Assembly (NCBI GenBank): GCA_030692055.1
Contig: JAUYCY010000101.1
Coordinates: 1 to 57,512 of the forward strand
Direction of reading: 5' to 3'
Source: Candidatus Omnitrophota bacterium
GTDB lineage: Bacteria > Omnitrophota > Koll11 > Duberdicusellales > 4484-171
Length of the DNA stretch: 57,512 nt
A model generated the notes under the pieces. The model saw only the letters and a program-made list of their open reading frames with translations. It had not been told where the DNA came from and did not search any database. Positions within the stretch are counted from its first letter, which is position 1, and each line of letters begins with the position of its first letter. The position numbers and the translations under genes are program-made. Below, one piece after another: positions 4,886 through 23,835 of the stretch.

Positions 4886-5790
4886 GATTTTTTTACCTTC
4901 TTATTTTTCTTTTCGCAATATGTATGCCAGATTGTTTTCCCCACGGTTTTATAGAGATCGATTTAAACAAAAGAGAGATAAAATTTGACAGTTTTCGTTT
5001 TGGAAATTATAGCATCGTTGCAGATTTATTCTTCGATGTAAGACAAAAAGACGGTTCTTTGATATTTAGCCTGGATGGCAAAAAAATTTCTTTAACCTCC
5101 GAAAAATCATTACCTTCTGAATGGATAACTAAGCGCAATTTTTCTTGGATAGAGATGAAGATGTTGTTAAAAGATAATAATTTGTTTATCAATTATTTTC
5201 GTTCCCCGGAATTTCTTATCAGGGGAAAAATTGATTTAACTACCCAAGAACTTCTTTTAGATGTAGATGGAAAATGGCAGGAAAAAAGTGTTTTTTTAGA
5301 TGGAAATACAAAAATATCGCTGAGGATTTGGGGTAGGCTTAGCGATTATTTGGTCAACGGGACATTGGATGTTGAAGACGGGGTGTATCGAGACGTTGAG
5401 TTTTCCAAATTTTGTGTGCATTTTTTAGGAAAACCACCGCTTTTTCACCTTACCGATTCCCAGATTACGCTTCGAGACGGCAGTGTTTATGAAATTGACG
5501 GCGCGATGGACGTAAGAGATTTCAGTAATATTTTTCCTAAGGCAGTATACATTTCTAAAAAAGTAGTATTAGGTGACTGGAAAATGCTTTCGGAGAGCGA
5601 TAAAAACGTTGGTTTAAGAAAAAATGTCGATGATAATCTCGACGTTGTTTTTGACACATATGATAGAGAAGATCAATCAATGGAAACCGGGACAGAGGTG
5701 CGTTATAAAATTAAGAGAGACCAATTCCTGAGATTACGAATGCAGGATGATAAAACTATTGTTGGATTTGAAAGGAGAAAAGAATTTTAG
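4882..5790 (+). CDS. Exported protein of unknown function (beta-rich, AsmA/TamB-like flavour)
   Basis: The start codon overlaps the clpC stop (ATGA), so translation is probably coupled. The first 20 residues ([15 protein letters not shown]) look like a cleavable signal peptide. The remaining 280 residues are rich in alternating hydrophobic/charged strands with repeated 'L-x-x-D/G' turns (for example LDGKKISLTSEK, GKIDLTTQELLLDVDGKW), as seen in AsmA/TamB/LPS-transport-type beta-helical proteins. The C-terminus ends in a DNLDVVFDTYDRE...RLRMQDDKTIVGFERR stretch, which recalls TamB/translocation-module ends. I do not recognise a family with certainty. The following mla genes fit an envelope role. 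Confidence 0.55.
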   Translation: MRFFYLLIFLFAICMPDCFPHGFIEIDLNKREIKFDSFRFGNYSIVADLFFDVRQKDGSLIFSLDGKKISLTSEKSLPSEWITKRNFSWIEMKMLLKDNNLFINYFRSPEFLIRGKIDLTTQELLLDVDGKWQEKSVFLDGNTKISLRIWGRLSDYLVNGTLDVEDGVYRDVEFSKFCVHFLGKPPLFHLTDSQITLRDGSVYEIDGAMDVRDFSNIFPKAVYISKKVVLGDWKMLSESDKNVGLRKNVDDNLDVVFDTYDREDQSMETGTEVRYKIKRDQFLRLRMQDDKTIVGFERRKEF

Positions 5791-13086: not shown

Positions 13087-13782
13087 ATGTTAAGAATATA
13101 TAACACCTTAACCAGAAAAAAAGAAGACTTTGTTTCTCAAAATCCTCCGCAAGTAAATATGTATACTTGCGGCGTGACGGTTTATGATGATTGTCATATC
13201 GGGCACGCCAGGAGTCTTTATATTTTTGACGTAATGAGAAGATATCTAAAATACCGCGGTTTTGACGTGGAATTTGTGCGTAATATCACCGATATCGACG
13301 ATAAAATTATTAATCGTGCCAACGAGTTGAAGGTTGATTGGCAGGAATTAGTTAAGAAATATATTGATAGGTATTATGAAGATTTAAAAGCGCTTGGAAT
13401 TGAGAAAGCAGATTCTGAACCGCGCGCTACAGAGAATATTCCTGATATGATTAAGTATATAACAGCGCTTATTGAAAAAGGTTATGCCTATGTTATAGAT
13501 AGCGGAATATATTTTAGCGTGCGTAAATTTAAGGAATACGGAAAATTATCTGGTCAAAGTATCGAGCAAATGTTAAGCGGGGTAAGGATCAAGCGGGATG
13601 AGAATAAGCTTGATCCATTAGATTTTGCTCTATGGAAGAAATCAGAACCTAATGAACCAAAGTGGGAAGCTGTCTTAGAAATAGAAGTTTCAGATGAAGA
13701 ATATGAAAAATTAATTAAGAAAGCCATTCAGGATAATGACGAAGATTTTCTCAAATTAAATAAAATAAATAAAAGCCAATGA
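13087..13782 (+). CDS. cysS: Cysteinyl-tRNA synthetase, N-terminal fragment (fractured gene)
   Basis: 231 codons. Residues 1-194 are ordinary CysRS: the first zinc ligand in YTCGVTVYDDCHIGHARS, the HIGH motif, NITDIDDKIINRA, and LDPLDFALWKKSEPNEPKW. Just where the family has a conserved W(D/E)SPWG-KGRPGWH block, the sequence changes at about 13669 to 37 codons of unrelated acidic/lysine-rich protein and stops at TGA 13780-13782. The rest of CysRS resumes at about 14729 in the third ORF. The fragment lacks the remaining zinc ligands and KMSKS, so it can work only if joined to, or assembled with, the other part. TGA overlaps the start of the next ORF (ATGA). Confidence 0.85.
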   Translation: MLRIYNTLTRKKEDFVSQNPPQVNMYTCGVTVYDDCHIGHARSLYIFDVMRRYLKYRGFDVEFVRNITDIDDKIINRANELKVDWQELVKKYIDRYYEDLKALGIEKADSEPRATENIPDMIKYITALIEKGYAYVIDSGIYFSVRKFKEYGKLSGQSIEQMLSGVRIKRDENKLDPLDFALWKKSEPNEPKWEAVLEIEVSDEEYEKLIKKAIQDNDEDFLKLNKINKSQ

Positions 13783-14705
13783 AAAGAATAGTTTTATGCA
13801 AAGGCGGTTGCGGAAGCAGGGCAATTTATAAAGGTTGGTGCAATATAAAATGGAAGAAAGGAAATAGGGTTTGTGTAACATGTCCAGAGCTTGAGAAGAA
13901 AAGAATAAAAGCTATTTCTACTTTTCGGATTAAAGAAGCAAAGTTGGGTTTAAACCCTATGCAGAATCCGATGATATGTAGAAAGAATCACTCAATAACA
14001 AGAAACATAAAATCATCACAAACTCTTAGAAAACTTGGAGAATTAAAACTTTTACCGCAACAAACAGAGTCAAGAGAGCTTCATGGCAGACGGTTAGCAA
14101 GAGTCAGGAAAGCCTTAAGAAGGTTATCGAAAGAAGGGAAATTAAATCATCAGATAGAATCAAAGGCGAATAAAAAGAGAAGACACCAGAAAATTAAACA
14201 AACATTAAAAAGATTGGCTGAAGAAAGAAAATTACCCAACCAGAATCTTAGCAAAGAGGAGAAGGCAAAATTTAGTAAAAAATTATCTCAAATATTAAGG
14301 AGAAAATTTAAAAAAGGAGAAATTAAGCTTAATGATTGGGGCAAGAGTCATAGATATAAAAGTTTGCGGAATGGAAAAGTAAAGTTTCGTTCTAAATGGG
14401 AAAGAGAAGTAGCCAGATTTCTAGATGGACGCGGCATCAATTGGAAATACGAAGCTTTAACAATTCCCTATTACGATAAAGAGAGGAGGTTATTTAGGAA
14501 TACGATCCCAGATTTTTATATTCCCGATTTTAATCTATTTATCGAAGTAAAAGGAAATGGGGAAATTGGAAATCAAAATACACAGGATAAACTAAACGGC
14601 GTTAGGCGGCAAGGGTATAAAATAATGCTTTTTGGCAAAAAACAAATAAAGATTTTAAGAGAAGATCCTGTAAAAATATTTTTGGCAATAAAAGAATTAA
14701 TGTGA
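13779..14705 (+). CDS. Homing-endonuclease-like protein: Cys-rich N-terminus, helical repeats, PD-(D/E)XK/Vsr-like nuclease
   Basis: A 308-residue basic protein inserted inside cysS. It has a Cys-rich start (CKGGCGSRAIYKGWC, then CVTCP) that could bind zinc; then four spaced copies of an RLxxEGKL-type helix (near 85, 112, 141 and 166), which resemble NUMOD3 DNA-binding repeats of mobile endonucleases; then a nuclease domain (about 200-305) with an early glutamate in FRSKWEREVARFL, IPDFYIPDF and IEVKG, the PD-x(n)-ExK pattern. This matches in outline the Vsr-like endonucleases reported between halves of split-intein 'fractured genes', though no intein halves are seen here. Start and stop overlap both cysS pieces by 4 bases. 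Family assignment is from motifs only. Confidence 0.75.
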   Translation: MKRIVLCKGGCGSRAIYKGWCNIKWKKGNRVCVTCPELEKKRIKAISTFRIKEAKLGLNPMQNPMICRKNHSITRNIKSSQTLRKLGELKLLPQQTESRELHGRRLARVRKALRRLSKEGKLNHQIESKANKKRRHQKIKQTLKRLAEERKLPNQNLSKEEKAKFSKKLSQILRRKFKKGEIKLNDWGKSHRYKSLRNGKVKFRSKWEREVARFLDGRGINWKYEALTIPYYDKERRLFRNTIPDFYIPDFNLFIEVKGNGEIGNQNTQDKLNGVRRQGYKIMLFGKKQIKILREDPVKIFLAIKELM

Positions 14706-15613
14706 AAAAGATTAAGATAAAAATAAGCGGTCGTCCTGGCTGGCATATTGAGTGTTCGGTGATGAGCCAGAAATTCTTAAAAACCGATACCCTTGACATA
14801 CACGCTGGGGGCAGAGATTTAGTTTTTCCGCATCATGAGAATGAAATCGCTCAAGCAGAGGCTCTAACCGGTAAACTTTTTGCCAAATATTGGATGCATC
14901 ACGGACTTTTAACTATCAACGGTCAAAAAATGTCAAAGTCTTTAGGGAATTTTATAACGATTAAAGATTTTATAGTTAAGCATAAATATACGGATATTTT
15001 AAAAATATTTTTTTTATCGGCGCACTATTCTCAGCCTATAGATTACAATGAAAAAAGGATAACTGAAGCTAAGCAGGCATTGGAGAGAATTTTACTTTTA
15101 TTGGACAAGATAGGGAAGATAAAGCAGAAACTAAAAGCTAAAGGTCAACGGCAAAAACACAAAGAAATAGAGGATATTAAGACAAGATTTATAGAGGCTA
15201 TGGATGATGATTTTAATGCACCACGCGGATTAGCTTCAATATTTGAATTGGTAAATGTACTAAATAAAAACATTGATGATTTAGATTTTATTTTGGCAGG
15301 CGCAACTACCCTTAAAGAGTTATTATCGATTTTTGGTATAATATCGGAAACGAGCCGAAGCAACAAGATATTCAAAAATATTAAAAATATATTTGAACCT
15401 CTTCCAAAGCTATTAAGTGACGACAAAGGATCTGATATGGTTGAGAGTATTGTTGATGAACGTTACATTGAAGAAATGATTGCCAAAAGAAATGAGGCGC
15501 GGCGGACTAAAGACTATTCTTTGGCAGATAAAATAAGAAAAGAATTAGAGCAGAAAGATATTATATTAGAAGATGCGAAAGATGGCGCTACAACATGGCG
15601 AAAAAAACTATGA
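14702..15613 (+). CDS. cysS: Cysteinyl-tRNA synthetase, C-terminal fragment (fractured gene)
   Basis: It starts at GTG 14702, which overlaps the previous stop. After nine non-native residues (KKIKIKIS), CysRS resumes at GRPGWHIECSVM, carrying the second zinc Cys, then FPHHENEIAQ (zinc His/Glu), WMHHG and the KMSKSLGNF signature, the anticodon-binding helical region and the end LEDAKDGATTWR. The conserved SPWGK segment that should link it to the first fragment is missing from both pieces. Catalytic parts are intact and show no stop or frameshift, so the piece is under selection or the insertion is recent. Confidence 0.85.
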   Translation: MKKIKIKISGRPGWHIECSVMSQKFLKTDTLDIHAGGRDLVFPHHENEIAQAEALTGKLFAKYWMHHGLLTINGQKMSKSLGNFITIKDFIVKHKYTDILKIFFLSAHYSQPIDYNEKRITEAKQALERILLLLDKIGKIKQKLKAKGQRQKHKEIEDIKTRFIEAMDDDFNAPRGLASIFELVNVLNKNIDDLDFILAGATTLKELLSIFGIISETSRSNKIFKNIKNIFEPLPKLLSDDKGSDMVESIVDERYIEEMIAKRNEARRTKDYSLADKIRKELEQKDIILEDAKDGATTWRKKL

Positions 15614-23576: not shown

Positions 23577-23678
23577 AATTGGGGTATTTTTAGAAAATAT
23601 GAAAGGAAAGATTGCCAATGGTATGATGTTTTTAAGGGTAAGGTCAGATTTGATGATTTGTATTTGCCTAAAAAATAA
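23577..23678 (+). pseudogene. Open in-frame tail after radC; unidentified 3' gene remnant
   Basis: Immediately after the radC TAG and in the same frame, 33 codons read NWGIFRKYERKDCQWYDVF and continue to TAA 23676-23678. The composition is protein-like (aromatic and charged residues, ending FDDLYLPKK) but has no start codon. It may be the end of a deleted gene or a lost extension of radC. I do not recognise the family. Confidence 0.3.
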
Positions 23679-23685
23679 AAACGAA

Positions 23686-23770
23686 CGAGCCCTGTGGATT
23701 TGGTTTGTCGAGGCTTAACCTACCAGATGGAAGGGAACACCTCAAACAACCCACAGCGGACTTACCGCCC
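23686..23770 (+). ncRNA. Structured RNA candidate, possibly a divergent small SRP (4.5S-type) RNA
   Basis: A long imperfect hairpin: CTGTGG (23692-23697) pairs with CCACAG (23751-23756), GTTT with AAAC, and GAGG (23710-23713) with CCTC (23740-23743). The apical part reads AACCTACCAGATGGAAGGGA followed by ACACC. Small bacterial SRP RNAs have AACCU-G-GUCAGG-CCGGAAGGGAGCAGC in this place, so the GGAA tetraloop and much of its flank agree, but two or three bases before the tetraloop are missing and AGCA reads AACA. SRP identity is inference; the hairpin itself is clear. Confidence 0.35.
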
Positions 23771-23835
23771 ATAATTAATATAAAACATTTTTAATATAAA
23801 GTCAAGAAGTAAAAGGTAGCCTTAAAAAGCGAAAA

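What the first reader, a model, noticed from the sequence alone, without database searches (positions are those of the whole stretch)
13087..15613. Cysteinyl-tRNA synthetase gene broken into two translatable halves by a Vsr-like/NUMOD endonuclease ORF
Seen: three ORFs overlap by four bases each (ATGA and ATGTGA junctions). The outer two are the halves of CysRS, with all catalytic motifs intact, and the middle one is a 308-residue protein with a Cys-rich start, four RLxxEGKL-type repeats and a PD-(D/E)XK-like domain. The conserved SPWGK pentapeptide at the break is missing and replaced by 37 and 9 foreign residues. No intein blocks or intron-like structure is visible at the edges. Known: fractured genes with split inteins around Vsr-like endonucleases exist, but those have intein halves of about 100 and 35 residues. 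Inference: either a two-chain CysRS, a mobile element with a new splicing route, or a recent knockout backed by another cysS.
Basis: partly seen in the sequence, partly recalled or inferred. Interest (0 to 1): 0.75.

Follow-up and report, generated by a model that had tools for sequence, protein, structure and literature searches.

The report
Mobile nuclease splits essential tRNA synthetase
A nuclease gene sits inside the gene for the enzyme that loads cysteine onto its tRNA, so that the enzyme is made as two pieces with short added tags; the same arrangement recurs at the same spot in several bacteria and archaea, which suggests a mobile element that breaks an essential gene and may bring its own means of holding the pieces together.

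Summary
The split is real. The window's cysS is read as an N-half (TIGR00435 positions 1-195), a 308-residue nuclease ORF and a C-half (200-465); only the SPWGK linker is missing. It is no chance and no assembly error: ten loci from Omnitrophota and DPANN archaea carry the same nuclease, all ten at the same point of a split cysS, with a similar 33-44-residue tail and a 9-residue head. Nine of those ten genomes show no other cysS; none has SepCysS over its cut-off. Fetched uninterrupted relatives keep an SPWGK-like linker, 30 of 30. Split and intact genes intermix (AU p=0.003). At codon level tail, nuclease and head are more alike among hosts than the flanking cysS, so the tags seem to travel with the nuclease. 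One single-chain CysRS keeps a tail-head scar (P0215). No intein or intron was found. Best reading: a homing-endonuclease element making a two-chain CysRS, akin to phage mobE/nrdA genes-in-pieces, but in an essential cellular enzyme and with conserved, perhaps docking, tags. Chain assembly and DNA cutting are inferred, not shown.

The parts
13087..13668 (+). cysS N-half body (residues 1-194, ends at the conserved Trp-Glu; holds HIGH and the first zinc ligand)
13669..13779 (+). element-borne tail of the N-half, 37 residues (AVLEIEVSDEEYEKL...); strand-like start (by pattern only), then two predicted helices
   Evidence: (helices at residues 203-215 and 219-224, block pLDDT 82-88, residues 191-200 only 60)
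13779..13782 (+). ATGA overlap: start of the nuclease ORF over the stop of the N-half (reinitiation-type junction)
13779..14705 (+). nuclease ORF, 308 aa, probable homing endonuclease
13797..13883 (+). Cys cluster (C7, C11, C21, C35; zinc-finger-like, by inference)
   Evidence: C7, C11, C35 invariant, C21 in at least 90% of 34 rows
14370..14681 (+). PD-(D/E)XK domain; likely catalytic E208, D245, E256, K258
   Evidence: (T7 endonuclease I)
14702..14705 (+). GTGA overlap: start of the C-half over the stop of the nuclease ORF
14702..14728 (+). element-borne head of the C-half, 9 residues (M/VKKIKIKIS)
14729..15613 (+). cysS C-half body from GRPGWHIEC on (second zinc ligand, KMSKS, DALR and C-terminal domain)

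Best explanation
A homing-endonuclease mobile element is inserted in cysS at the codons for the conserved SPWGK linker. It consists of a tail (3' end of the N-half ORF), a PD-(D/E)XK nuclease ORF and a head (5' end of the C-half ORF). The nuclease probably cuts the uninterrupted site, and repair from an occupied copy installs the whole unit; because the occupied gene lacks the SPWGK codons it would not be cut again. The three ORFs are probably read from one message by stop-start reinitiation. The two CysRS chains then assemble without a peptide bond into one working enzyme, perhaps helped by the tags: the mostly acidic tail strand plus two helices on the N-half and the basic KIKIKI strand on the C-half. 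Shown here: the anatomy, its recurrence at one site across bacteria and archaea, the patchy distribution, the shared evolutionary history of tail, nuclease and head, purifying selection, and a database protein whose sequence looks like a scar of loss. Inferred: DNA cutting, homing, reinitiation, chain assembly, and docking by the tags.
For: All 10 loci found by a scan of genome contigs with the nuclease lie inside a cysS split at the same point. With the window, 11 of 11 have a 33-44-residue tail after W[DE] and PGW at residues 12-14 of the C-half. In 28 heads looked at (17 database C-halves, the window's among them, and 11 loci, four of the 28 counted twice) positions 4, 6 and 8 are hydrophobic and 3 and 5 basic. 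30 of 30 fetched Omnitrophota genes retain a five-residue SPWGK-like linker. Full-length elements in only 3 of 384 Omnitrophota genomes and 2 of 108 of one family. Split and intact genes do not sort: one split clade rejected, p-AU 0.00285, 22 split against 31 intact rows. Among four Omnitrophota, same-amino-acid codons are identical at 0.49 and 0.46 in the two cysS bodies but 0.68 in the tail, 0.70 in the nuclease and 0.76 in the head; stratified by amino acid the odds ratio is 2.33 (1.45-3.82) for tags and 2.83 (2.31-3.59) for the nuclease. dN well below dS in both halves and in the nuclease. 9 of 10 genomes have no other cysS and 0 of 10 have SepCysS over cut-off. N-half, nuclease and C-half lists share 8 contig lengths. 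P0215 is one chain with WDAIFEI-KKIKIKIS-GRPGW. Net charge of the first nine tail residues is -2 to -4 in 10 of 11, of the head +4 or +5 in 11 of 11.
Against: No experiment shows assembly, aminoacylation or DNA cutting. The predicted C-half alone has a disordered head (pLDDT 34) and low confidence for residues 1-70; the predicted N-half alone shows no strand in the tail; the complex could not be modelled. L001's tail start has net charge 0. For the pair window-L003 the tail shows little codon excess (16/31 identical), and tail dN/dS is 0.16-0.42 where defined, on only about 20 synonymous sites. The element is AT-richer than cysS, so part of the raw codon likeness is composition. In L006 and L008 a short frame-breaking insert interrupts the N-half near its start, so those two need a further explanation to be functional. 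G008 holds an extra cysS N-terminal fragment at a contig end, so a second copy or strain variant is possible there. Completeness of the ten genomes was not given, most are MAGs in many contigs. The window's own genome is not held. The nuclease scores under Pfam's own cut-off (24.2 against 29.1 bits). The 30 linker controls were the best-scoring matches, a choice that favours intact genes.
Confidence: 0.8

Rival explanations
1. A new protein-splicing or split-intein element: tail and head are remnants of, or substitutes for, intein halves and join the two CysRS halves covalently.
For: Layout resembles split-intein fractured genes with a nuclease between (recalled; such work was met only in the listing).
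Against: Tail of 33-44 and head of 9 residues match no intein family; the first tail residue is a possible nucleophile (Ser) only in L010 of 11 loci and in none of 21 database N-halves, and no head ends in His-Asn; in P0215, a one-chain form, tail strand and head strand are still present, so they seem tolerated in an unbroken enzyme.
Confidence: 0.04
2. A self-splicing or enzyme-spliced RNA intron with a long ORF.
For: Group I introns exist in the group (one near a partial tRNA in L001), and two archaeal loci have short intron-like inserts elsewhere in cysS.
Against: No Rfam intron match in window 13400-15000 even at E up to 5; the 5' edge does not fold better than shuffles (z=0.64); the tail varies most at third codon positions (identities 0.77/0.91/0.66); SPWGK codons are in neither flank, so splicing at the edges would not restore the enzyme.
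Confidence: 0.03
3. A dead insertion: cysS is broken and the cell relies on another source of Cys-tRNA.
For: The window's genome could not be searched; G008 has a second cysS fragment; in L006 and L008 the N-half is also interrupted by a frame-breaking insert.
Against: Motifs are kept in the loci with ordinary variants (HIGN, KMAKS; GWHIED in L009); dN well below dS in window, L001-L003; no other cysS in 9 of 10 genomes, among them a single-contig 1.43 Mb chromosome (other matches at most 41.7 bits, or 65.1 summed in one 733-residue frame, read as other class I synthetases); SepCysS over cut-off in 0 of 10.
Confidence: 0.04
4. A two-chain CysRS in which the tags are neutral leftovers: homing and assembly are right, but the halves find each other through the CysRS fold alone and the tags do nothing.
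For: The tags match no known family convincingly (best E=0.26; best 0.0038, VPg, in 1 of 11 members); the C-half model leaves the head disordered; P0215 has lost the tail helices.
Against: Head positions 3-6 and 8 keep their character in all 28 heads looked at; tail E198 is invariant across 11 loci, and tails keep a similar pattern across bacteria and archaea; P0215 keeps both strands.
Confidence: 0.3

Closest known systems
Phage Aeh1 nrdA split by the homing endonuclease gene mobE (genes-in-pieces ribonucleotide reductase); seen as passages in PMC2988022 and PMC3653736, primary paper not read
   Same: Homing-endonuclease ORF splits a conserved gene in a critical region; no intron or intein; the split nrdA is reported to give an active enzyme; overlap of start and stop codons is described for mobE and other free-standing homing endonucleases.
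   Different: There a phage gene and an HNH nuclease. Here an essential tRNA synthetase of cellular genomes, a T7-endonuclease-I-like nuclease, recurrence at one site across bacteria and archaea, and conserved tags that share the nuclease's history.
Fractured genes with split inteins around Vsr-like endonucleases (recalled, not read)
   Same: Nuclease ORF between two halves of a host gene.
   Different: No intein halves; the conserved linker is lost; the nuclease is closer to T7 endonuclease I.
T7 endonuclease I (PDB 3cae, 1m0d, 1fzr, 2pfj)
   Same: Same pattern E...PD...ExK; profile E=1.2e-6.
   Different: Only the part from about residue 200 on matches; here it follows a Cys cluster and repeats, and the gene lies in cysS.
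Split tRNA synthetase genes of Nanoarchaeota and Micrarchaeota (passages of PMC6349945)
   Same: A tRNA synthetase made from two genes in small archaeal genomes.
   Different: The passages seen mention no nuclease and no CysRS; here the split goes with a nuclease and occurs in bacteria too.

Membership tests
Homing-endonuclease genes-in-pieces (mobE/nrdA kind) | Nuclease ORF inside a conserved coding sequence, leaving two ORFs with own starts and stops | tested here: met
   11 of 11 loci (L006 and L008 N-halves have an additional break near the start)
Homing-endonuclease genes-in-pieces (mobE/nrdA kind) | Relatives with the uninterrupted gene at the same site | tested here: met
   30 of 30 fetched Omnitrophota loci uninterrupted, linker kept (best-scoring matches of 58 genomes)
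Homing-endonuclease genes-in-pieces (mobE/nrdA kind) | No intron or intein | tested here: met
Homing-endonuclease genes-in-pieces (mobE/nrdA kind) | Split product works as an enzyme | not testable with these tools
   indirect only:
Homing-endonuclease genes-in-pieces (mobE/nrdA kind) | Nuclease cuts the empty site and spreads by repair | not testable with these tools
   indirect: patchy distribution and codon evidence
Split-intein fractured genes | Intein halves with splicing motifs at both edges | tested here: not met
Group I / group II intron | Catalytic RNA core around the ORF | tested here: not met
   (Rfam; window 13400-15000 at E up to 5)
PD-(D/E)XK nucleases, T7 endonuclease I branch | E, D, E-x-K catalytic set conserved | tested here: met
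   E208, E256, K258 invariant and D245 in at least 90% of 34 rows; alignment
PD-(D/E)XK nucleases, T7 endonuclease I branch | Score over the curated Pfam cut-off for PF05367 | tested here: inconclusive
   E=2.9e-5, 24.2 bits against 29.1; some homologs carry PF05367 precomputed
Vsr-like (EDxHD) homing endonucleases | Clear sequence match to Vsr-like proteins | tested here: not met
   no Vsr family; 3r3p (mobile intron protein, Vsr-like by recall) only E=0.018

The most novel reading that the evidence does not exclude
The element carries its own assembly device: a mobile gene that breaks an essential enzyme in two and brings a matched pair of peptide tags that hold the halves together without splicing, a non-covalent counterpart of a split intein, and that has crossed between bacteria and archaea at one exact site. 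Its loss leaves a hairpin scar in a once more single-chain enzyme (P0215).
Probability: 0.5. Interest if true: 0.88.

Novelty: new variant of a known kind. Interest (0 to 1): 0.76.

Why it matters
Mobile elements in essential genes are commonly thought to need splicing (introns, inteins) to be tolerated. Here is a cellular case, in a tRNA synthetase, in which tolerance seems to come from assembly of two chains, with tags that share the mobile part's history. It would widen the genes-in-pieces idea from phage genes to a housekeeping enzyme in two domains of life, and it offers a natural pair of candidate docking tags and a naturally split CysRS that can be tested directly. It also helps annotation: pieces of such genes are filed as hypothetical protein or class I tRNA ligase family protein (P0202, P0213).

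Tried and rejected
Own genome: not held. Intein and intron searches: nothing. Known family for the tail: no convincing hit (best E=0.26; best 0.0038 in 1 of 11). Virus carriers: one partial match, query residues 201-252, among IMG/VR contigs, so no sign of a viral carrier at that sensitivity. Weaker nuclease relatives: in none of the 8 such loci read did the ORF lie between cysS pieces, so they were not pursued. N-terminal extension of the nuclease in L006: read as a structured spacer, not part of the core protein. Structure prediction of the two-chain complex was not possible: single chains only, both jobs used. Direction of the cross-domain transfer: the nuclease tree puts the Omnitrophota rows next to the archaeal branch of L009, but it is unrooted, so direction was not settled. 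Rows dropped before counts: two split rows identical to loci (P0086, P0091) and four intact loci missed by the script (L047, L050, L053, L056); five of the 31 intact rows there (P0102-P0106) are database proteins, mostly fragments, called intact because they show the linker. An earlier count said that all ten genomes lack another cysS; that was before G008's fragment was seen and is mended here.
Full report
Observation. The outer ORFs match TIGR00435 (cysS) at positions 1-195 and 200-465 of 466 and PF01406 at 5-183 and 187-300 of 301. The motifs looked for (HIGH, first zinc Cys, GWHIEC, HHENE, KMSKS) are present in the window. So the host residues lost are the SPWGK linker; in their place stand a 37-residue tail on the N-half and nine residues on the C-half.

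Recurrence. A protein search with the N-half gave 20 other proteins with the same kind of tail (P0081-P0100); two of them are those of L002 and L003. A search with the first 44 residues of the C-half gave 16 other C-halves with the same kind of nine-residue head, all with GRPGW at offset 9; three are those of L001-L003. Only the best 120 rows of each search are listed. Eight contig lengths are common to 20 N-half, 20 nuclease and 16 C-half entries (lengths), consistent with the three lying together, although contig length is only a proxy. The nuclease has 79 homologs at E up to 0.001. A scan of genome contigs gave 53 pattern matches and 10 confirmed loci: three Omnitrophota and seven DPANN archaea. 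Every one of the 10 lies in a cysS split at the same point. The host enzymes there are 34-42% identical between Omnitrophota and archaea.

Distribution and mobility. Full-length elements occur in 3 of 384 Omnitrophota genomes, 2 of 108 genomes of one family, 4 of 371 of one archaeal phylum and 1 of 156 of another. All of these are genomes already known; the other matches were weak and partial (at most 67.5 bits). Of 58 relatives of G003 the 30 best-scoring loci were fetched, and all 30 have an uninterrupted five-residue linker; this choice favours intact genes. In a tree of 22 split and 31 intact N-parts (196 columns) the two kinds intermix, with 10 changes on the tree and at least 3 forced by strong branches, and one split clade is rejected (p-AU 0.00285). 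The element has thus been gained or lost more than once.

The mobile unit includes the tags. Between four Omnitrophota (window, L001-L003) identical codons among same-residue pairs are 0.49 (n=828) in the N body, 0.68 (158) in the tail, 0.70 (1367) in the nuclease, 0.76 (42) in the head and 0.46 (910) in the C body; none of 457 overlapping body windows reaches the tail's value, and 10 of 438 nine-codon windows reach the head's. The element is AT-richer (GC3 0.21 for tags and 0.26 for the nuclease against 0.35), so I controlled for codon use: excess over expectation is 0.29 for tags, 0.42 for the nuclease and 0.10 for the body, and the odds ratio stratified by amino acid is 2.33 (1.45-3.82) for tags and 2.83 (2.31-3.59) for the nuclease. 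The step falls close to W[DE]|tail and head|GRPGW. Against this, the window-L003 pair shows little excess in the tail (16/31), and the last 15 body codons before the tail are at 0.58.

Function kept. In the window and L001-L003 dN is 0.15-0.19 for the N body and 0.24-0.45 for the C body with synonymous sites near saturation; for the nuclease dN/dS is 0.16-0.21, for the tail 0.16-0.42 where defined, on about 20 synonymous sites. In the ten genomes behind the loci the only strong PF01406 matches are the two halves, except for G008, where an extra N-terminal fragment (67 bits) lies at a contig end. The other matches are at most 41.7 bits, or 65.1 summed in one frame, and I read them as other class I synthetases. 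G001 is a single-contig 1.43 Mb chromosome; completeness of the genomes was not given. SepCysS was over its cut-off in 0 of 10 (best 39.4 bits against 365). The window's own genome is not held. In L006 and L008 the N-half is also interrupted by a short frame-breaking insert near its start, which must be removed or bypassed if those two are to work.

Nuclease. The profile of 34 homologs matches T7 endonuclease I (3cae E=1.2e-6, 1m0d 8.5e-6, 1fzr 5.6e-5, 2pfj 7.2e-5) between profile positions 201 and 264, and a mobile-intron protein weakly (3r3p, 0.018). E208, E256 and K258 are invariant and D245 nearly so. Pfam's PF05367 is matched below its own cut-off. Of nine PHROGs families matched, the best is of unknown function; a Holliday junction resolvase (2.1e-16), endonucleases and one named homing endonuclease (2.5e-4) follow, and one head-closure family. 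A junction-resolvase motif serving a homing endonuclease has a precedent in F-CphI (Endo VII motif; passages of PMC6083498).

Tags. Tail: a stretch like AVFEIEVSD with an invariant Glu, then two helices predicted with block pLDDT 82-88. Head: hydrophobic at positions 4, 6 and 8 and basic at 3 and 5 in all 28 heads looked at. Net charge is -2 to -4 for the first nine tail residues in 10 of 11 (0 in L001) and +4 or +5 for the head in 11 of 11. The predicted C-half alone has a disordered head and low confidence up to residue 70, which fits a chain that needs its partner but does not show it; no strand was predicted in the tail. Pairing of the two strands is my inference.

A scar. P0215 (476 residues, two contigs) is a single-chain CysRS with ...EPDEPGW-DAIFEI-KKIKIKIS-GRPGWHIEC...: first tail strand joined to the head, tail helices and nuclease gone, SPWGK not restored. 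P0101, an N-half that agrees with it at 192 of 207 positions, ends after a shortened tail. I read P0215 as loss of the element by in-frame deletion. It is the only such case among 163 single-chain rows held, and none of the 30 held loci shows one.

Literature. Passages of PMC2988022 and PMC3653736 describe mobE splitting nrdA of phage Aeh1 with function kept; the primary paper was not read. Passages of PMC6349945 mention split tRNA synthetase genes in Nanoarchaeota and Micrarchaeota. Two papers on cysteine coding, PMC5424206 and PMC9499178, hold the words split gene but not split CysRS (passages). Searches for CysRS or cysS together with homing endonuclease found one paper, PMC4427996, whose passages are on another subject, and none; homing endonuclease with split gene and aminoacyl-tRNA synthetase gave five papers, seen as a listing, none on this subject by title. 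Only open-licence papers are held, so a report elsewhere is possible.

Verdict. A real, conserved, mobile fracture of an essential gene; a new variant of the homing-endonuclease genes-in-pieces kind. The boldest part, that the element brings its own docking tags, is plausible but untested.

Noticed in passing
L008 1311-1338 and L006 about 5039-5069: In two DPANN cysS genes a frame-breaking insert of 28 and about 31 nt sits at the same codon (CGP^TVY); both fold with bulges like archaeal bulge-helix-bulge introns (z only -0.9). Perhaps mini-introns in cysS mRNA.
   Followed up: partly
L006 5715-5988: The spacer between the N-half stop and the nuclease start folds far better than shuffles (284 nt folded, z -4.4) and matches no Rfam family over its gathering score; its last predicted stem reaches the GGAGG before the nuclease ATG. 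P0033 and P0036 show a similar N-terminal extension in the alignment; P0031, P0052 and P0062 are as long.
   Followed up: partly
L094 (G008 C5 contig end): A second cysS N-terminal fragment without the 28-nt insert in the same genome bin: strain variant or second copy.
   Followed up: partly
L001 195-465: Group I intron (Rfam RF00028, 96 bits) close to a partial tRNA.
   Followed up: no
window 23678-23775, minus strand: DUF3800-V RNA (RF02964, 62.7 bits).
   Followed up: no
L064 and L080 (G544): Two related nuclease ORFs with similar repeats by eye that do not lie between cysS pieces: the nuclease family seems wider than the cysS element.
   Followed up: no
L008 89-1267: ORF of 392 residues just before cysS with LAGLIDADG-like motifs by eye; Pfam match only E=0.09.
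   Followed up: partly
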